Below are positions 1-11,202 of a DNA stretch of 34,071 nucleotides, piece by piece. Positions within the stretch are counted from its first letter, which is position 1; each line of letters begins with the position of its first letter. The notes under the pieces are model-generated. The model ran no database searches and was not told the DNA's origin. It worked only from the letters and a program-made list of their open reading frames with translations. A program made the translations under genes and the position numbers. The DNA comes from Myxococcales bacterium UBA5297 (GTDB lineage: Bacteria; Myxococcota; Myxococcia; Myxococcales; UBA5297): NCBI GenBank assembly GCA_002408385.1, contig DHSB01000099.1, positions 1-34,071 on the forward strand, written 5' to 3'.

Positions 1-74
1 AGCGACCGGTGGGATGAAGCGATGGACATCACCCTTCACACCGCGCCAGTCGGCCTCCGGGTATTGCGGGCCGC

Positions 75-275
75 ATGATCAGGATGGCATCCACTCCCGA
101 CGCGCCTTTGCTTGTTCCCCATGCCACCGTCTTGCCGCACTTCGAGCAGCTAACCGTTCCTCTTGCCGAGGCGGCAGCAACTCTCAGATGCGAAATGGAA
201 GTCCTGCGAAACACCCGCGACCTCCTCCTCCCCCGCCTCCTTTCCGGCCAACTCTCCCTGGAGAAAGCCGCATGA
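75..275 (+). pseudogene. hsdS: C-terminal remnant of type I restriction specificity subunit HsdS
   Basis: The 66-residue reading frame ends in the helix typical of the C-terminus of HsdS, the subunit that gives a type I restriction-modification complex its DNA target. The visible signature is the run L-R-N-T-R-D-L-L-L-P-R-L-L-S-G near residues 45-59, preceded by a P-H-F-E-Q-L segment as in the last conserved region of HsdS. The same frame has a stop at 15-17, so an intact HsdS cannot read through from the left. A different frame, open from base 1, stops at 76-78 and overlaps the ATG at 75 by four bases. The gene is therefore truncated, split or frameshifted here. Its stop overlaps the hsdR start (ATGA at 272-275), the usual translational coupling. 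The identification as HsdS is fairly firm; whether a functional HsdS exists upstream cannot be seen. Confidence 0.65.
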
Positions 276-3200
276 CCTCGCACCCGTACACCGAGAAGGC
301 GCTGGTCGAGCAATCGGCAGAGGAGATCCTCTCCGCACTCGGTTGGACCACGGTGTCGGCAGGCGAGGAATCCTTTGGTGCGGCCGGGACCCTCGGCCGC
401 GAGACCACGCGCGACGTCGTGCTCGTCCCTCGGCTGCGCATGGCTCTCACCAAGCTCAACCCGAGCGCCCCGTCCTCGGCGATCGACCTCGCGGTCGACG
501 AGCTTCTCCGCGACCGGACGGCGATGGACCTCACGGCGGCCAATCGCGAGATCCATCGGCTCATCACCGAAGCCGTGAAGGTCACCTTCAAGAACCCGCA
601 GACCGGCAAGGACGAGCCGGTCGCGCTCCGCGTCGTCGACTGGGAGTCGCCCGAGAACAACGACTTCCTCGCCGTCCGCCAGCTCACGCTCAAGGGACCG
701 CTCTACAACTGCATCCCCGACGTCGTGCTCTTCGTGAACGGCCTGCCCTGGGTCGTCATCGAGCTGAAGCGGCCCGGCATCGGCGTGCGCCAGGCTTTCG
801 ACGAGAACCTCACCAGCTACAAGCACCCGCAGAACGGCGTCCCGCGACTCTTCGCCTACAACGCGCTGCTCATCGCCTCGAACGGCACCGACAGCAAGGT
901 CGGCTCGCTCACGGCGGACTGGGGCCGCTTCTTCGACTGGAAGCGCATCGAGCGCGAGGACGAGCCGCGCAAGGTCTCGCTCGAGGTGCTGCTGCGCGGC
1001 ACCTGCGACAAACGCCGGCTCCTCGACCTGGTGCAGAGCTTCACCCTCTTCTCCGAGCACAAGACCGGGCTCGCGAAGATCATCGGGCAGAACCACCAGT
1101 TCCTCGGCGTCAACAACGCCATCGACGCCACGCTCAAGGCGCGCGACGAGGGCCACGGCCGCGCCGGCGTCTTCTGGCAGACCCAGGGCTCGGGCAAGAG
1201 CTTCTCGATGGTCTTCTACGCCCAGAAGATCCTGCGCTCGATCCCGGGCAACTGGACCTTCGTGGTCGTCACCGACCGCGTCGAGCTCGACCTCCAGATC
1301 GCCAAGACCTTCGCGGCCTGCGGCGCGGTCGACGACGCGAAGAAGTGCCACGCGACCAGCGGCGCGCACCTGCGGCAGCTCCTCGGCGAGAACCACCGCT
1401 ACGTCTTCACGCTCATTCACAAGTTCCAGACCGCCGACGTCCTCTGCGACCGGCGCGACGTCATCGTCATCGTCGACGAGGCGCACCGCACGCAGTACGA
1501 CCAGCTCGCGATGAACATGCGCGCCGCGTTGCCGAACGCGCTCTTCGTCGCCTTCACCGGCACCCCGCTCATCGCCGGCGAGGAGCGCACCCGCGAGGTC
1601 TTCGGCGACTACGTCTCGATCTACGACTTCCAGCAGTCGGTCGAGGACAACGCGACGGTCCCTCTCTACTACGAGAACCGCACGCCCGAGCTGCGGCTCA
1701 CCAACCCCAACCTCAACGAGGACCTCTACGAGGTCATCGACGAGGCCGCCCTCGACGACGAGGGCGAGGCGCGGCTGCAGAAGCTGCTCGGGAAGCAGTA
1801 CCACCTGATCACGCGTGACGACCGGCTCGACACCATCGCCGGCGACATCGTCGAGCACTTCCTGGGGCGCGGGTTCCAGGGCAAGGCGATGGTCGTCTCC
1901 ATCGACAAGGCGACCGCGGTGCGCACCTACGAGAAGGTGCGCCGCGAGTGGGAGGCGGAGAAGAAGCGGGTGCGCGCCGAGCTGGCCCGCTACGACAAGG
2001 ACGACGGCGAGGACTACGGCCTGCGCCAGCGGCTGAAGCGGCTCGAGTACGTGGACATGGCGGTGGTCGTCTCGCCGGGCCAGAACGAGATCGAGGAGAT
2101 GCACAAGCTCGGCATCGACATGGTGCCGCACCGCAAGCGGATGGCCGAGTCGCAGCCGCCGCTCGACGAGCGCTTCAAGGACCCGGAGGACCCGCTCTCC
2201 ATCGTCTTCGTCTGCGCGATGTGGCTGACCGGCTTCGACGCGCCGAGCGTGAGCACGGTCTATCTCGACAAGCCGATGCGCAACCACACGCTGATGCAGA
2301 CCATCGCGCGCGCCAACCGCGTCTACCCGGGCAAGCACAGCGGCGTGATCGTGGACTACGCCAACGTCTTCGCGTCGCTCGAGAAGGCGCTGGCGCTCTA
2401 TGGCGCGGCGAGCGGCGGGCGCACGCCGGTGCGCGACAAGGCGGCGCTGGTCGGCGAGCTGCGGGCGACGCTCGCCGCGCTCGACGCGTTCTGCAAGGGC
2501 CAGGGCGTGAAGCTCGCGGGCATCGAGAAGAGCAAGACCGCGCTCGAGCGGCTGACGCGGGTGGCCGAAGCGGCGAACGTGCTGCTGTCGCCCGACGAGC
2601 GGCGCAAGGCGTTCCTCGCGCAGGCGCGGCTGAGCGAGCGGCTCTACAAGGCGGTCAAGCCGCACAAGAGCGCCTCGGAGTTCGCGGTGCGCATGGCGAC
2701 CGTGACCGCGCTCGCCGAGAGGATTCGGGCCGAGACCGCGCCCGAGAAGCAGGACATCGCCGACGTGCTGCAGCGCATCGGGCAGGTGCTCGACCGCTCC
2801 ATCGAAGGCGCGGGGATAGCGAGCGAGGGCCCGCCGCCCATCGACCTGTCGCGCATCGACTTCAAGGCGTTGGCCGAGCGGTTCAAGGAGTCGGAGACGA
2901 AGAACCTCGACCTGGAGCGGCTCAAGGCGGCGATCCGCGCGCAGCTCGAGCGGCTGATAGCGGTGAACGAGACGCGGGTCGACTTCCGGGAGCGGTTCGA
3001 GAGCCTCATCGAGGCCTACAACGCGGGCAGCCGGCAGATAGAGCAGCTCTTCCTCGACCTGTTGGAGCTGGCGCAGTCGCTGACCGAGGAGGAGACGCGG
3101 CACGCCCGGGAGCGGCTCACCGAGGAGGAGCTGGTGGTCTTCGACCTGCTCACGAGGCCGGGGCCGGAGCTGACGACCGAGGAGCGCGACGAGGTGAAGA

Positions 3201-3406
3201 AGGTCGCGCGCAGGTTGCTGAAGAAGCTGCGGTCAGTCTTGACGGTCGATTGGCGCAAGACGGCGATGGCTCGGGCGCGGGTGCAGGACGCGATCGAAGA
3301 GGCGCTCGATGAGGGGCTGCCGCGGGCTTACTCGCCGGAGGTGTTTAAGGCGAAGGCTGGGGCGGTGTTCCAGCATGTTTACGAGCATTTGCGGTGGGTG
3401 GCGTGA
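272..3406 (+). CDS. hsdR: Type I restriction enzyme endonuclease/translocase subunit HsdR
   Basis: HsdR is the ATP-dependent DNA translocase and nuclease of type I restriction complexes. The 1044-residue product has the family's usual length and domain order. The N-terminal PD-(D/E)xK nuclease shows D150 in P-D-V-V-L and E164/K166 in V-V-I-E-L-K-R-P. Walker A is T-Q-G-S-G-K-S at about 304-310, motif II is D-E-A-H at 402-405, and motif III is F-T-G-T-P at 428-432. The second RecA lobe carries L-T-G-F-D-A-P near 651-657 and Q-T-I-A-R-A-N-R just after. A helical C-terminal domain follows. The frame stays open for 86 codons upstream, but the ATG at 272 begins the family-like sequence M-T-S-H-P-Y-T-E-K and overlaps the hsdS stop, so I chose it. 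hsdM must lie to the left, outside the window. Its last 303 bases are repeated downstream at 4374-4675. Confidence 0.95.
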   Translation: MTSHPYTEKALVEQSAEEILSALGWTTVSAGEESFGAAGTLGRETTRDVVLVPRLRMALTKLNPSAPSSAIDLAVDELLRDRTAMDLTAANREIHRLITEAVKVTFKNPQTGKDEPVALRVVDWESPENNDFLAVRQLTLKGPLYNCIPDVVLFVNGLPWVVIELKRPGIGVRQAFDENLTSYKHPQNGVPRLFAYNALLIASNGTDSKVGSLTADWGRFFDWKRIEREDEPRKVSLEVLLRGTCDKRRLLDLVQSFTLFSEHKTGLAKIIGQNHQFLGVNNAIDATLKARDEGHGRAGVFWQTQGSGKSFSMVFYAQKILRSIPGNWTFVVVTDRVELDLQIAKTFAACGAVDDAKKCHATSGAHLRQLLGENHRYVFTLIHKFQTADVLCDRRDVIVIVDEAHRTQYDQLAMNMRAALPNALFVAFTGTPLIAGEERTREVFGDYVSIYDFQQSVEDNATVPLYYENRTPELRLTNPNLNEDLYEVIDEAALDDEGEARLQKLLGKQYHLITRDDRLDTIAGDIVEHFLGRGFQGKAMVVSIDKATAVRTYEKVRREWEAEKKRVRAELARYDKDDGEDYGLRQRLKRLEYVDMAVVVSPGQNEIEEMHKLGIDMVPHRKRMAESQPPLDERFKDPEDPLSIVFVCAMWLTGFDAPSVSTVYLDKPMRNHTLMQTIARANRVYPGKHSGVIVDYANVFASLEKALALYGAASGGRTPVRDKAALVGELRATLAALDAFCKGQGVKLAGIEKSKTALERLTRVAEAANVLLSPDERRKAFLAQARLSERLYKAVKPHKSASEFAVRMATVTALAERIRAETAPEKQDIADVLQRIGQVLDRSIEGAGIASEGPPPIDLSRIDFKALAERFKESETKNLDLERLKAAIRAQLERLIAVNETRVDFRERFESLIEAYNAGSRQIEQLFLDLLELAQSLTEEETRHARERLTEEELVVFDLLTRPGPELTTEERDEVKKVARRLLKKLRSVLTVDWRKTAMARARVQDAIEEALDEGLPRAYSPEVFKAKAGAVFQHVYEHLRWVA
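3104..3406 (+). repeat. Direct repeat copy 1: 3' end of hsdR
   Basis: This 303-bp segment, the functional hsdR C-terminus, recurs in direct orientation at 4374-4675 with roughly 18 differences by eye. Similarity starts abruptly at GCCCG(G/A)GAGCGG on the left. On the right it fades some 30 bp past the stop codon. The repeat unit including the sequence between the copies is about 1.27 kb. Confidence 0.9.
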
Positions 3407-3500
3407 GGCGGGGAGGCCGCGTCCGTGACGGCTGATAGCGTGCGACATATCCGGCTATTCGGGTGCAGGCATCACAACGGACAAAGTAGGGAGAGAGGAC

Positions 3501-4298: not shown

Positions 4299-4373
4299 CC
4301 GTATGGTGCTGGGTTCTTGGGCCAAACATGAAGCCCCTCGCTTGGTGGCCGACCTGAAAGTGACAGCGGCGGC
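4299..4373. other. Short spacer up to the left edge of hsdR tail copy 2
   Basis: No gene or clear terminator is visible. The sequence is unrelated to the DNA preceding the first tail copy at 3104, so the left edge of the duplication falls at about 4373. Confidence 0.6.
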
Positions 4374-4675
4374 GCCCGAGAGCGGCTCACCGAGGAGGAG
4401 CTGGTGGTCTTCGACCTGCTTACGAGGCCGAGGCCGGAGCTGACGACCGTGGAGCGCGACGAGGTGAAGAAAGTCGCGCGCAGGTTGCTGAAGAAGCTGC
4501 GGTCAGTGCTGACGGCGGATTGGCGCAAGACGGCGATGGCGCGGGCGCGGGTGCAGGATGCGATCGAAGAGGCGCTCGATGAGCGCCTGCCGCGGGCTTA
4601 CTCGCCGGAGGTGTCAAGGCGAAGGCTGGGGCGGTGTTCCAGCATGTTTGTGAGCATTTGCGGTGGGCGGCGTGA
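4374..4675 (+). pseudogene. Duplicated, frameshifted hsdR 3' end (copy 2)
   Basis: This is a second copy of the final hundred codons of hsdR, lacking the rest of the gene. About 94% of bases match copy 1 by eye. Codons run in frame through the E-E-E-L-V-V-F-D-L-L segment, the K-V-A-R-R-L-L-K-K-L helix and D-W-R-K-T-A-M-A-R-A. At 4611-4616, GTGTTTAAGG of copy 1 has become GTGTCAAGG, losing one base, so the last 20 or so codons are out of frame and run on to 4718. Several changes alter amino acids (for example E to V, G to R, Y to C), as expected for a non-selected or separately derived allele. It is not a functional gene. It may be the displaced original tail after insertion of 3501-4298, or a piece of another hsdR allele. 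Confidence 0.88.
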
Positions 4676-4842
4676 GGCACGAGGGCGGCCGCGCGAACGG
4701 CGTGCGTGCATGAGGTGACAGCGTCGCCGCATGGCCGAGCGGTTGTATGAACGCCGACCAGGCAAAGCGTCGTCGTCGGCGAGTCCTGACCGTCGCCACC
4801 AGATTCACGTGGGAGCCTTGCTAGGGGTGCGTTCTCTCACTT
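4676..4842. other. Gene-free stretch before the HTH/ImmA gene
   Basis: No coding frame is convincing here. The first 25-30 bases still resemble the DNA after the hsdR stop. Bases 4732-4755 look like the D-arm region of a serine or leucine tRNA, but no matching acceptor stem or T-arm can be built, so no tRNA is called. Confidence 0.5.
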
Positions 4843-4867
4843 GTTCGGGGGTTGTCGACAGCCGAAC
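4843..4867. promoter_or_regulatory. Possible operator: interrupted palindrome upstream of HTH gene
   Basis: GTTCGG at 4843-4848 and CCGAAC at 4862-4867 are inverted arms around a central perfect palindrome TGTCGACA (4853-4860), ending 21 bases before the ATG at 4889. The arms are not placed symmetrically about the centre, so this could be either a binding site or a hairpin. The position suits autoregulation by the XRE-type domain encoded immediately downstream. Confidence 0.35.
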
Positions 4868-4888
4868 GAGCGAGATGCTTGAGGTACG

Positions 4889-6289
4889 ATGACCGCGATG
4901 AAGACCTTCGCTGCCAGCCTCTCAGAGGCGCGTGCGGCCGCCGGGCTGTCGCTCGAGCAGCTCGCAGAGGCCTCGAACCTCGAGGTAGCGACGCTCAGAG
5001 CGCTCGAAGCCGGCGAGGAGCAGCCCAACTCCGAGCAACTGGACCGAATCTCGCTCATGTTCGGCGTTCGGCCTCTCGACTTTGTTACGGGGAGCGCCGC
5101 AAAGGGCCCTGCCACCCTGCTTCTCAAGTCTTCGGCCAACGCTGGGAAGGCGAGCCTGGAGAGGCTGCTTTCACTCAATTGGGGCCAGGGCATCGGGGAG
5201 TTTTTCCGCGTCGCCCGCGATCTCCGCGACCTGAACGAAACACTCGGATGCCCGCGCAAGGAGTTGCCTGCCGATCTCGCCGCACACCTAGCAGACAAGC
5301 AGCTGAACGAGGGTGAACGACTCGCCGACGCAGTGCGCGAGAGGTTGGGCCTGGGCGACAAGAAGATCGACTCGATGCGCGATCTTCTGGAGGGCCTCGG
5401 AGTTGCGGTCGTCTGGACTGATCCCGAGGAGTTCGCCAAGGCGGTGGATGGTTCGTCGACGGTCGATCCGATGCCAACCGTCCTCGTCAATCTGGTCGGC
5501 GGGCATGATCAGTTCTGGCGCAACCGCATGACGATGGCACACGAGCTCTGCCACATCCTGTTCGACCTGAAGCAGGGTGGCGCCGAGGCCATGGTGAGCC
5601 CCGACGTCGGGCTGAATGAGCAGGGCCGCAGGGGCGCTCGGTGGAACCTCTTCGAAGGCTTTGAGGACATCGAGAGCCGTGCAGATGCATTTGCGGCGTG
5701 CTTTCTCGCGCCGCGACGCGGCGTGCAAAGGGCGGTTGCCGGCATCCCGCCCGCGAGCGAGCAGGCAATTCGCCGCGTCGGCAAGAAGTATGGCGTGGGG
5801 CGTACGGTCGCCATCAATCGGCTTTGCGATGTCTTTCGCCTGGGCTTTGCCGAGCGCAGCAGTCTGGCTTCGAGAAGGCCGTGGTGGCCAGCCGAGGGAT
5901 TCGAAAGAGACTGCGCCGAAGAGGACGAAATCGGCCTGCGAAGGGGCACGCTTCGTCGAAAGGCGCTCCAGGCGTATTGCGAAGGCGCGATCGACGCGGT
6001 CGAGGTCAGAGAGCTCCTGCGCGTTGCGCTGACCGAAGAGCTGGACGAGCCTTCTGTTCCCAAATCGCGACGGGCGCCGGTGGTCTCGGTCGAGGACTCG
6101 CTCAGAAGGCACGCCCAGCGCTTTCTTGCACGAGAAGGCTTACGCAACTATTTCCCGTCCAAGGTCGTCGCCGTGGACGAGGAGTGGATCATTGATGTCA
6201 TCCGGGCGGACGAGCCCTCGCGTGTCAGGCTGACGCTTCGTATGTCGCCGGGCGGAGAGGTGCTCGACGTCTCGAGGCGTCGTGGCTGA
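4889..6289 (+). CDS. XRE-type HTH protein with ImmA/IrrE metallopeptidase domain
   Basis: The 466-residue protein combines a DNA-binding domain and a zinc peptidase domain, an architecture known from phage immunity regulators (ImmA), the Deinococcus IrrE/PprI family and Xre-COG2856 toxin-antitoxin-like modules. Residues about 5-62 form an XRE helix-turn-helix (G-L-S-L-E-Q-L-A-E-A-S-N...L-R-A-L-E-A-G-E). A helical linker spans about 65-150. The peptidase follows, with H-E-L-C-H at 218-222 and a third likely zinc ligand E262 in I-E-S-R-A-D-A-F-A-A. Residues about 300-466 form a charged C-terminal domain I do not recognise. The ATG at 4889 follows a GAGG; ATG 4898 is an alternative three codons later. 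The stop lies inside the next gene, so the two are co-translated. Inferred role: a protease-regulated repressor that cleaves itself or a partner on a stress or invasion signal. Confidence 0.85.
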   Translation: MTAMKTFAASLSEARAAAGLSLEQLAEASNLEVATLRALEAGEEQPNSEQLDRISLMFGVRPLDFVTGSAAKGPATLLLKSSANAGKASLERLLSLNWGQGIGEFFRVARDLRDLNETLGCPRKELPADLAAHLADKQLNEGERLADAVRERLGLGDKKIDSMRDLLEGLGVAVVWTDPEEFAKAVDGSSTVDPMPTVLVNLVGGHDQFWRNRMTMAHELCHILFDLKQGGAEAMVSPDVGLNEQGRRGARWNLFEGFEDIESRADAFAACFLAPRRGVQRAVAGIPPASEQAIRRVGKKYGVGRTVAINRLCDVFRLGFAERSSLASRRPWWPAEGFERDCAEEDEIGLRRGTLRRKALQAYCEGAIDAVEVRELLRVALTEELDEPSVPKSRRAPVVSVEDSLRRHAQRFLAREGLRNYFPSKVVAVDEEWIIDVIRADEPSRVRLTLRMSPGGEVLDVSRRRG

Positions 6290-6770
6290 CGCCGATTTTC
6301 ATGTCGAGCAGACATGGCCCAACTCCTGTGTCGCGGCGTGCATGTGCATGGTTCGCGCGCGGCAGGGCGAGAGCTTTGACGAGGCCCAATTCCACGATGG
6401 GGCGGGCCCGGCCGGCCAGCCCATCGAGCTCGCGGCTGCTCTCCTCCAGAGCCGGACCGAGGTGTGGAATTCAGAAGAGCTGGAGACGCTGAAGGTGCGC
6501 CTAGCCACGGGGCATTGGGCGATCGTCACCCTCTTCGGCCCCCGCTACATGTCGAGGCTCGCCAATCCGCCACCATCGAAGCACGGCGCTTTGTGTACGC
6601 CGGGTGATTTCCCGGCTCCTCTCCATGCAGTGGTGGCCGTCTCGGCGAATAGGCGAGGCATCGCTCTGCTTGACCCCTTCTTCGCGAAGGCGGCTCAACC
6701 GGTCGTGCTTTCGAATGAGGGTTTTCTGTTCGCGTGGACTGGCCAAGTGGTCTTCGCGCAGGTGCCCTGA
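6282..6770 (+). CDS. C39/papain-like cysteine peptidase domain protein, partner of the ImmA/IrrE gene
   Basis: The 162-residue protein is almost entirely a papain-fold cysteine peptidase-like domain of the C39 type. Near the start, V-E-Q-T-W-P-N-S-C-V-A-A-C gives the oxyanion Gln (Q10) and catalytic Cys (C16). P-L-H-A-V-V-A-V supplies the His (H115), and L-L-D-P-F-F the Asp (D131). No signal peptide or membrane segment is visible, so it probably acts in the cytoplasm, unlike the C39 domains of bacteriocin exporters. It starts at GTG 6282 and overlaps the upstream stop by eight bases, so expression is coupled to the HTH/metallopeptidase protein. The overlap suggests a fixed stoichiometric pair, for instance an effector and its controller. 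Catalytic residues appear intact, but substrate and role are unknown. Confidence 0.75.
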   Translation: MADADFHVEQTWPNSCVAACMCMVRARQGESFDEAQFHDGAGPAGQPIELAAALLQSRTEVWNSEELETLKVRLATGHWAIVTLFGPRYMSRLANPPPSKHGALCTPGDFPAPLHAVVAVSANRRGIALLDPFFAKAAQPVVLSNEGFLFAWTGQVVFAQVP

Positions 6771-6993: not shown

Positions 6994-7015
6994 TAGGTAC
7001 GCGGCCTTCAAAGGC

Positions 7016-7103
7016 TGGCTGCCCGGCATCCGGCCGCCACGCTGGGTGCTCGAGGTCGTATTCGAGGACCGGCTCAAGAACTACGACCCCGCCCCGGCGA
7101 AGT
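7016..7103 (+). pseudogene. Fragment of a Uma2-family gene
   Basis: These 88 bases match 8099-8186 of the intact Uma2 gene at 81 positions by eye and translate to the same G-I-R-P-P-R-W-(V/A)-L-E-V-V-F-E-D core. The frame has no recognisable Uma2 sequence on either side, so this is a decayed copy. It begins 23 bp after the right end of the inverted-repeat element. Confidence 0.75.
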
Positions 7104-7631: not shown

Positions 7632-7816
7632 ACGCCATAGGCGGGGGCGAGCAGATTCAGACTGCCGCAATCGTGTGCGTGGACGCTGGCTACGCCCTGG
7701 CGGTCGTCTTCGTCTGCGCCCGGGCCCGCCGACGACGTCGCCGATGAAGAAGCAGAATTGGGAATCCGATCGGCGCTGCGTCCGTGAGCTCGGCACGTGA
7801 GGGCTATCTTCCCTTC

Positions 7817-8569
7817 ATGAGCCAGAAGCAAGAGAGCCAGAGGCCCCGAATCCCCGCCGACCTGTCGGCCTGGGAGATCCGCGGGGAGCACATCGCGCAG
7901 TGTCCGGAGCAGGGCGAGATCATCGGCGTGCTCAGATCCTCGTTGGAGCAACTCGCCCGGCAGCGTGGCTGGAAGAGCGTCCGGGTCGGGTCCGACAACT
8001 ACTTTGCCTGGATTCGCGAGCGGCCGCTGGTGCGGGTCTCACCGGACGTCTATCTCCTCGACGACCCTCCGCCCGACGTCCGCGACCACTGGAGAACCTG
8101 GCTGCCCGGTATCCGACCGCCACGCTGGGCGCTCGAGGTCGTATTCGAGGACTGGCACAAGAACTACGACCCGGACCCGGCGAAGTACGAAATGCTCGGC
8201 ACGCGCGAGCTGGTCGTCTTCAGGCCCGACGCGGTGGGGCGCGTCGATTCATCCAGCCAAGTGCCGCTGACGGTATTTCGCCGCACGGAACAAGGAGCGC
8301 TCGTCGTCTCGTATCGGGGACCTGGGCCGGTGTTCTCCGAGGAGCTCGGCGTGGCGCTGGTGGTCGTGGGCGAAGGCGACGGGCCGCTGCTGCGGCTATC
8401 CGAGCTCGGCATGAAGGCCCTTCCGACCGAGGCGGAGGCAGAGGAAGCCGAGCGTGCCGTGCGAATCGCAGCGGAGAAGGCGCTCGCAAAGGCGGAGGCG
8501 GAGTTCGCCGCGGCCAAGGCGCGCATCGCCGAGCTCGAGCGAGAGCTATTTGGGAAGAAGCGGCAGTAA
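7817..8569 (+). CDS. Uma2-family (DUF820) restriction-nuclease-fold protein with C-terminal coiled coil
   Basis: Uma2/DUF820 proteins have a PD-(D/E)xK nuclease-like fold and occur in many copies in cyanobacteria, myxobacteria and related genomes; their function is unsettled. In this 250-residue product the core residues are D77 (S-P-D-V-Y-L), E107 (A-L-E-V-V) and K115 or K123 (in D-P-A-K-Y-E-M-L-G). Residues about 204-245 are an Ala/Glu/Lys-rich coiled coil, a common tail in this family. I chose ATG 7817; a GTG at 7784 in frame would add 11 residues. A partial copy lies 1.1 kb upstream and a second, divergent Uma2 gene is at 31312-31869. No partner gene is evident. Confidence 0.85.
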   Translation: MSQKQESQRPRIPADLSAWEIRGEHIAQCPEQGEIIGVLRSSLEQLARQRGWKSVRVGSDNYFAWIRERPLVRVSPDVYLLDDPPPDVRDHWRTWLPGIRPPRWALEVVFEDWHKNYDPDPAKYEMLGTRELVVFRPDAVGRVDSSSQVPLTVFRRTEQGALVVSYRGPGPVFSEELGVALVVVGEGDGPLLRLSELGMKALPTEAEAEEAERAVRIAAEKALAKAEAEFAAAKARIAELERELFGKKRQ

Positions 8570-10088: not shown

Positions 10089-10877
10089 CTAGTTCGGTGC
10101 GAAGACCTCGTCCGGACAGCGGAAGGCAGTGCCCGTTCCGCCGTCGCCCTCGACGAGCCGGACGTAGTTCGCGCCCATCTCCGCCGCCTGGCGCTTCATG
10201 TTGGCCTGCTGCGTCTCGATCACGATGGACTTGCCGAGCACCTGACCCGCTTCGACGCATTGCGGGGGCGGATCGGACTTCAGCAACCGGACCTTCTCCT
10301 CGGGGATCGGCGCGGCCGGCTGCGCGCTCGCTGGAGCCGAAGCGCTGAGCTCGGGCGGACAGCGGAAGGCCGTGCCCGTTCCGCCCTGACCCTCGAGCCG
10401 GACGTAGTTCGCGCCCAGCGCGGCGGCCTGGCGCTTCATGTTCGCCTTCTGCGAGGCGAGCGACATCGACTTGCCGAGGACCTGCCCGGCCTCGACGCAC
10501 TGGAAAGGCGGATCCGACTTCATCAACCGGACCTGTTCTTCGGGAATCGGCGCGGCCGTTTGCGCGGCCGAGGGGTCCGTCGGACCAAAGAGCTCGGGCG
10601 GGCAGCGGAACGCGGTGCCCGTGCTGCCCTCACCTTCGAGGCGGACGTAGTTCGCGCCCAGCGCGGCGGCCTGGCGCTTCATGTTGACCGTCTGCGTCGC
10701 GAGCCGGATCGACTTGCCCAGCACCTGCCCGGCCTCCGTGCAGGCCGGCGGCGGATCCGACTTCATCAACCGCACCGCGGCCTCGGCCGTCGACAGGTTC
10801 CCGGCCTGCGCTCCCTTCGACGACGCACATCCGGCTGCCAGAGACGTGGCGGCCACGACCACTACGAAACGGCGCAT
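10089..10877 (-). CDS. Lipoprotein with three tandem DUF4156-like repeats
   Basis: The 262-residue product has a lipoprotein signal peptide with lipobox L-A-A-G-C17. Three near-identical repeats follow at about 35-93, 115-173 and 195-254 with a period of 80 residues. Each has V-R-L-(M/L)-K-S-D-P-P, then C-x-E-A-G-Q-V-L-G-K-S, N-M-K-R-Q-A-A, G-A-N-Y-V-R-L and T-G-T-A-F-R-C-P. The two Cys per repeat probably form a disulfide. The pattern resembles DUF4156-type small lipoproteins, which usually carry one such domain. Linkers are Ala/Pro-rich (A-A-P-I-P-E-E). The start at 10877 is supported by GGAGAGAA just upstream and by the signal peptide. It is probably an envelope lipoprotein of unknown function. 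The DNA repeats are themselves highly similar, indicating recent duplication or gene conversion. Confidence 0.85.
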   Translation of the reverse strand: MRRFVVVVAATSLAAGCASSKGAQAGNLSTAEAAVRLMKSDPPPACTEAGQVLGKSIRLATQTVNMKRQAAALGANYVRLEGEGSTGTAFRCPPELFGPTDPSAAQTAAPIPEEQVRLMKSDPPFQCVEAGQVLGKSMSLASQKANMKRQAAALGANYVRLEGQGGTGTAFRCPPELSASAPASAQPAAPIPEEKVRLLKSDPPPQCVEAGQVLGKSIVIETQQANMKRQAAEMGANYVRLVEGDGGTGTAFRCPDEVFAPN

Positions 10878-11202
10878 TCTTCTCTCCTCGGATCGGCCAC
10901 TGCTGCCAGTGGCCTCAGTGGTGCCCGACCTTTCGCACTGGGAATCGAAACGAGCAACAGGGCGCGAAGGGCGCGCAAGGATTGCGAGCGGCATTTCCGC
11001 GTCTTGGTCGGCAGGCCAGAGGTCGGCGCATATGGGCTTCGGCGAGAATGCGGGCCGCTTCGGGTCAGCGAGGTGAGCGGGCGGCCTGTTTGCTCGTGGC
11101 AGCCAACTTCTGGTCGCAACTCGGCGAGGGCAGTGGGCCCCGGGCTGGCCGAAGCTGCAGCTTCAACCTCCATCGCCTCGGAAGCGCACTCGTCCTGCCC
11201 AC
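10878..11202. other. Gene-free stretch between lipoprotein gene and nuoN
   Basis: This holds the upstream region of the triple-repeat lipoprotein gene and the 3' region of the nuo operon, both on the minus strand. A perfect 14-base palindrome GAAGCTGCAGCTTC lies at 11151-11164 but has no loop or T-run. No gene is visible. Confidence 0.5.

What the first reader, a model, noticed from the sequence alone, without database searches (positions are those of the whole stretch)
4889..6770. Overlapping XRE-ImmA/IrrE metallopeptidase and C39-like cysteine peptidase: candidate undescribed two-protease system
A DNA-binding metallopeptidase with intact H-E-L-C-H and a small, apparently cytoplasmic C39-like cysteine peptidase with intact Gln/Cys/His/Asp share an 8-base overlap. 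XRE-COG2856 genes are known partners in toxin-antitoxin and phage-regulation modules, but a dedicated papain-fold partner is not one I know. The pair sits beside a type I restriction locus and decayed elements, a typical defence-island setting. Hypothesis: the HTH protein represses the operon and restrains the cysteine peptidase, and its metallopeptidase responds to damage or infection.
Basis: partly seen in the sequence, partly recalled or inferred. Interest (0 to 1): 0.72.

Follow-up and report, generated by a model that had tools for sequence, protein, structure and literature searches.

The report
Paired regulator and papain-like protease genes
Two overlapping genes, a DNA-binding metalloprotease-type regulator and a small papain-like protease, sit side by side in a dozen genomes of myxobacteria and their relatives, which suggests a toxin-antitoxin-like switch whose killer would be a protease.

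Summary

The pair is conserved. I read the context of 13 intact C39 genes: 12 directly follow such an XRE-M78 gene, one a type ISP restriction enzyme. All 13 keep the four catalytic residues; the M78 site is kept in 11 of 12.

Best reading: a RosmerTA-like toxin-antitoxin module whose toxin slot holds a papain-fold protease, restrained by a PepSY-like tail. Pairing and conservation are shown; toxicity, inhibition and trigger are inferred. Four searches of open-licence papers found no description. New variant of a known kind.

The parts
4889..6289 (+). XRE-ImmA/IrrE (M78) protein, 466 aa, predicted antitoxin/repressor with a metallopeptidase domain
   Evidence: (best PADLOC model RmrA, E 2.9e-21)
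4901..5095 (+). HTH (XRE) domain, residues 5-69
5279..5890 (+). M78 (ImmA/IrrE) metallopeptidase domain, residues 131-334, H218-E219-L-C-H222 with E262
6086..6286 (+). C-terminal PepSY-like domain, residues 400-466, seen only in C39-associated XRE-M78 proteins among those tested
6282..6770 (+). C39/papain-fold cysteine peptidase, 162 aa, Q10-C16-H115-D131; predicted toxin/effector, probably cytoplasmic
   Evidence: hydropathy maximum 1.19 over 19 residues
4835..4875 (.). interrupted 14-nt inverted repeat upstream of the first gene, candidate operator (weak)
   Evidence: 9 of 400 dinucleotide shuffles of 4690-4888 hold one as good
272..3406 (+). hsdR, type I restriction subunit, neighbour; the start at 272 is my choice within the ORF 14-3406
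   Evidence: REase_I models (given from 119)
4373..4693 (+). duplicated hsdR 3' end (copy of 3103-3421, 93%), a remnant to the left of the pair

Best explanation
The two genes form a RosmerTA-like toxin-antitoxin (abortive-defence) module with a new kind of toxin. The first gene product binds the operator through its HTH and holds the second product, a cytoplasmic papain-fold (C39-like) protease, inactive; a PepSY-like tail found on the C39-paired proteins is the likely inhibitory surface. On a trigger (DNA damage or phage infection, by analogy with IrrE/CapP/ImmA), the M78 domain or another protease removes or alters the antitoxin, the operon is derepressed and the C39 protease cuts one or more essential cell or phage proteins, so that growth or phage replication stops. 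Shown: the pair, its conservation, intact catalytic residues, and the match between tail and C39 partner. Inferred: autoregulation, inhibition by the tail, toxicity, trigger and substrate.
Confidence: 0.55

Rival explanations
1. Regulatory protease switch without toxin: the C39 peptidase is an anti-repressor that cleaves the XRE-M78 protein (or a third repressor), and the pair controls a stress or developmental regulon, like ImmA/ImmR or IrrE/DdrO with roles divided differently.
For: CapP and IrrE/PprI (M78 part) and DdrO (HTH part) are among the nearest folds of the first protein. C39-type peptidases cut at double glycines (PMC12136450, passages), and 5 of 12 XRE-M78 proteins hold an LVGG just before the HExxH helix.
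Against: The LVGG is missing in 7 of 12. I noticed no third gene common to the loci in the ORF lists (by eye, no clustering was run). In the same slot, nine tail-less XRE-M78 genes carry PIN-like genes, a toxin class.
Confidence: 0.2
2. Plain addiction or maintenance module of small mobile inserts: a protease-based TA pair that stabilises the insert, with no defence role.
For: Patchy distribution. In the window, L007 and L113 the pair lies beside or between direct repeats of a neighbouring gene's 3' end.
Against: One locus lies between PglX- and PglZ-type BREX genes (L006), one near AriA/AriB-like genes (L109), and one C39 gene is coupled to a type ISP restriction enzyme.
Confidence: 0.15
3. 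The C39 protein is a leader-peptide peptidase for a bacteriocin or RiPP, and the XRE-M78 protein its regulator.
For: The closest folds are PCAT1 and ComA peptidase domains, which act on double-glycine leaders.
Against: No ABC-transporter part is fused to it. I noticed no exporter of that kind beside it in the ORF lists (read by eye and by a PADLOC scan, not by a full Pfam scan). Linkage is to XRE-M78 or a restriction enzyme.
Confidence: 0.05

Closest known systems
RosmerTA (RmrA/RmrT), the ImmA hub of type II toxin-antitoxin/phage-defence systems
   Same: First protein has the HTH plus M78 architecture and matches RmrA models best (E 2.9e-21); two coupled genes; the partner gene varies between systems (PMC10440598 passages).
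   Different: Partner is a papain-fold protease; the partners described in the passages seen are a membrane-depolarising toxin and PIN-like nucleases, and the words cysteine, peptidase, papain and C39 do not occur in that main text. The antitoxin has an additional PepSY-like tail. No toxicity or defence tested here.
XRE-COG2856 fusions with PIN toxins (Makarova et al. 2009)
   Same: Same fused XRE-M78 protein followed by a toxin-like gene; nine tail-less relatives read in the same class have PIN-like partners.
   Different: C39 instead of PIN; extra tail; the terms cysteine protease and papain do not occur in that paper's main text (PMC2701414).
Cpe1/CdiA-CT papain-like protease toxins with immunity proteins
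   Different: Those belong to T6SS/CDI delivery proteins used against neighbours and countered by immunity proteins (PMC12136450 passages); here a free-standing protein beside a DNA-binding M78 protein.
CapH/CapP and DdrO/IrrE
   Different: There repressor and protease are separate proteins and no papain-fold partner is described (recalled, not tested).
PepSY domains of YpeB
   Different: YpeB has three PepSY motifs and is a spore protein (PMC12331253 passages); Pfam finds no PepSY in the XRE-M78 proteins.

Membership tests
RosmerTA / ImmA-hub type II TA | antitoxin with HTH and M78 domain | tested here: met
   best RmrA model E 2.9e-21; Pfam HTH_3 and Peptidase_M78
RosmerTA / ImmA-hub type II TA | coupled, conserved second gene | tested here: met
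   12 of 13 intact C39 genes directly follow XRE-M78
RosmerTA / ImmA-hub type II TA | second gene belongs to a described RmrT toxin family | tested here: inconclusive
   no PADLOC match for protein 2 at E 1 or better; I did not check which RmrT models that library holds
RosmerTA / ImmA-hub type II TA | toxicity of the partner neutralised by the antitoxin | not testable with these tools
   needs expression assays
RosmerTA / ImmA-hub type II TA | anti-phage activity | not testable with these tools
   needs plaque assays
Peptidase C39 / papain-like cysteine proteases | papain fold | tested here: met
Peptidase C39 / papain-like cysteine proteases | Gln/Cys/His/Asp set | tested here: met
   13 of 13 loci; 20 of 20 (Gln, Cys) and 22 of 22 (His, Asp) rows of A4 that cover the site
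Peptidase C39 / papain-like cysteine proteases | passes Pfam's curated C39 cut-off (22 bits) | tested here: not met
   window 13.4 bits, L008 21.1 bits; L007 and L009 no match at E 1; hence 'C39-like' and not a filed member of PF03412
PepSY domain | PepSY fold | tested here: inconclusive
M78 (ImmA/IrrE) peptidase | HExxH plus third-ligand Glu | tested here: met
   window and 10 further of 12 members; lost in L112

The most novel reading that the evidence does not exclude
A portable protease effector with a matched tail: the C39-like protease is a toxin cartridge that at least two unrelated prokaryotic defence proteins (an XRE-M78 protein and a type ISP restriction enzyme) have taken up, each carrying a small extra C-terminal domain that holds the protease in check until infection. 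To my knowledge these would be the first infection-triggered papain-fold protease toxins controlled by a PepSY/cystatin-like inhibitor tail in a cytoplasmic toxin-antitoxin setting.
Probability: 0.25. Interest if true: 0.85.

Novelty: new variant of a known kind. Interest (0 to 1): 0.68.

Why it matters
Known toxin-antitoxin toxins mostly cut or modify RNA or hit gyrase, membranes or other targets by means other than proteolysis (recalled); a protease in the toxin slot of the ImmA/Rosmer hub would add a new killing chemistry to a network known for partner swapping. The match between a tail domain on the antitoxin and the identity of the toxin gives a simple test of how such antitoxins change partners, and the coupling of the same protease to a type ISP restriction enzyme would tie protease effectors to restriction in bacteria.

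Tried and rejected
Chance overlap of two ORFs: rejected by conserved pairing. The single-sequence protein search for C39 found only itself; the relatives appeared only through the neighbours of XRE-M78 genes and then a profile. Viral contigs gave no confirmed match for either profile; plasmid and phage records gave none for the XRE-M78 protein at E 1e-10 (C39 was not searched there). Double-glycine self-cleavage site in the XRE-M78 protein: present in 5 of 12 only, not general. Co-evolution by mirror tree: r 0.72 with all 12 (5 of 20000 permutations) but r 0.25 without L108 and L109 (2135 of 20000), so not used. Pfam did not confirm PIN for eight PIN-like partners of the class, nor did a PDB profile search. 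PIN is my reading of their motifs, supported by weak below-cut-off Pfam hits in L030, L056 and L057 and by a clear DUF4411/PIN partner in L113; two partners (L015, L016) had no match. Similarity between the restriction-enzyme tail and the XRE-M78 tail: 7.6 bits and no hhalign match, so shared origin is not claimed. Type ISP C-termini also vary in other ways: of eight other enzymes read, four stop within 16 residues after the common end, one (L160) runs on for 40, and three carry what looks like an S24/LexA domain (my reading). L099, a partial C39-like hit (E 6e-5), was not counted. Joint structure prediction was not run: both prediction jobs went to the single proteins. sigma-70 promoter scan: none found.

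Full report

Is the pair conserved? Starting from the first protein: a homologue search gave 15 proteins, one of them (99% identical) the window's own or nearly so; their alignment gave 82 relatives in GTDB species genomes, of which the best 80 loci were kept. The four nearest, all Myxococcota (L006-L009), have a C39-like gene directly downstream. A profile of four C39 proteins found none in the other 76 loci, some of which are short contigs. Starting from the C39 side: a profile of 22 sequences found it in 10 of 317 genomes of the class of Polyangium sp. 15x6 (E 1e-6 or better, ten candidates scored per genome), and all ten have an XRE-M78 gene immediately upstream. Four of these ten genomes had been reached by the first route: three through the pair (L006-L008), one (L098) through another XRE-M78 gene. 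In the window's own phylum sample 2 of 195 genomes have it, the window's and G141. With the window and L009 this makes 12 XRE-M78 pairs. The thirteenth C39 gene, in G141, starts at a GTGA overlapping the stop of a 1694-aa type ISP restriction-modification enzyme. The context of the others was not seen.

Are the active sites kept? Gln10, Cys16, His115 and Asp131 are present in 13 of 13 C39 proteins. The M78 ligands His218, Glu219, His222 and Glu262 are kept in 11 of 12 XRE-M78 proteins; in L112 they read V, V, Q, S while its C39 partner is intact. So the C39 site is the more strictly kept. Between the two closest pairs of loci the XRE-M78 protein is 88% and 86% identical, the C39 protein 74% and 51%, with dN/dS below 0.4 for both.

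The restriction-enzyme case. The G141 type ISP enzyme aligns with LlaBIII over 18-1614, where LlaBIII ends (1574 of 1578), and has 80 further residues. In 14 other genomes with a match to its C-terminal part (3 of 195 and 11 of 317) no match extends past position 394 of 464, so the extra part is not shared; some of these matches are pieces that end earlier. But type ISP C-termini vary in other ways too, and the tail shows no convincing similarity to the XRE-M78 tail.

Surroundings. The window pair lies beside hsdR. L006's pair lies between PglX- and PglZ-type BREX genes, and L109's about 4.6 kb from AriA/AriB-like genes. L113's follows a second XRE-M78 gene with a DUF4411/PIN partner. The G141 gene is coupled to a restriction enzyme, and L144's ends in an hsdR-like fragment. 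In the other eight of 14 loci I noticed nothing of the kind among the 100 ORFs called within about 7 kb by a simple GC3 rule; the PADLOC tally shows only the first 25 of 79 families, so weaker hits may be hidden. No background rate was computed.

How it probably works. XRE-M78 proteins are a hub antitoxin (RmrA) that pairs with different toxins (PMC10440598, passages), and earlier work linked COG2856-XRE fusions to PIN and RelE toxins (PMC2701414, passages). The C39 gene occupies the slot where relatives carry a PIN-like gene, and papain-fold proteins of this shape can stop growth from inside the cell: Cpe1 inhibits growth when expressed in E. coli, cuts GyrB and ParE at a double glycine and is neutralised by a bound immunity protein (PMC12136450, passages). 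I therefore read the pair as a toxin-antitoxin or abortive-defence module in which the tail, the HTH protein or both restrain the protease and M78 or another event releases it. Nothing here measures toxicity, binding or a trigger.

Novelty. Searches of the open-licence papers for papain-like with ImmA and toxin-antitoxin, PepSY with antitoxin, C39 with Xre, peptidase and toxin-antitoxin and cysteine protease toxin with toxin-antitoxin listed no paper whose title or abstract start describes such a pair; only the listings were seen, and subscription papers and preprints are not covered. PADLOC-DB 2.0.0 has no model that matches the C39 protein. I file it as a new variant of the RosmerTA/ImmA-hub kind, not as a proven member, because membership of a described toxin family is not shown and function is untested.

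Noticed in passing
window 3103-3421 and 4373-4693; L007 5719-5877, 8210-8368, 9374-9526; L113 5916-6060 and 9251-9395: Direct repeats of a neighbouring gene's 3' end (89-93% identical) near the pair in three loci. In L007 and L113 copies lie on either side of the pair; in the window both hsdR copies lie to its left. This suggests insertion at gene 3' ends with the end restored.
   Followed up: partly
window 75-275: A short ORF ending at the presumed hsdR start reads by eye like the C-terminal end of an hsdS specificity subunit; the rest would lie before the contig start.
   Followed up: no
window 4835-4875: Interrupted inverted repeat TCTCACTTGTTCGG / CCGAACGAGCGAGA just upstream of the first gene, a possible operator; 9 of 400 shuffles do as well.
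   Followed up: partly
L112 7002-8240: XRE-M78 protein that has lost all four metal-site residues while its C39 partner is intact: a natural test of whether M78 catalysis matters.
   Followed up: yes
L159, L161, L162 (type ISP enzymes of G267, G412, G455): Type ISP restriction enzymes with an extra C-terminal domain that looks by eye like an S24/LexA peptidase.
   Followed up: no
L113 4345-6026 and 7336-9199: Two XRE-M78 modules in a row, one with a DUF4411/PIN partner and one with a C39 partner.
   Followed up: partly
L006 41-11074: The pair sits between PglX- and PglZ-type BREX genes, with a weak AbiEii-like gene also there.
   Followed up: partly
window 7015-7103 and 8098-8186: An 89-bp stretch of the gene at 7784-8569 (Uma2-like by eye, not tested) is repeated upstream at 92% identity, a decayed copy to the right of the pair.
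   Followed up: no
window 10094-10776: Three tandem copies of about 240 bp inside a lipoprotein-like ORF (10089-10994, minus strand).
   Followed up: no
L008/L109: Between these two loci the XRE-M78 protein is 86% identical but the C39 protein only 51%: the putative toxin evolves much faster than its partner.
   Followed up: partly
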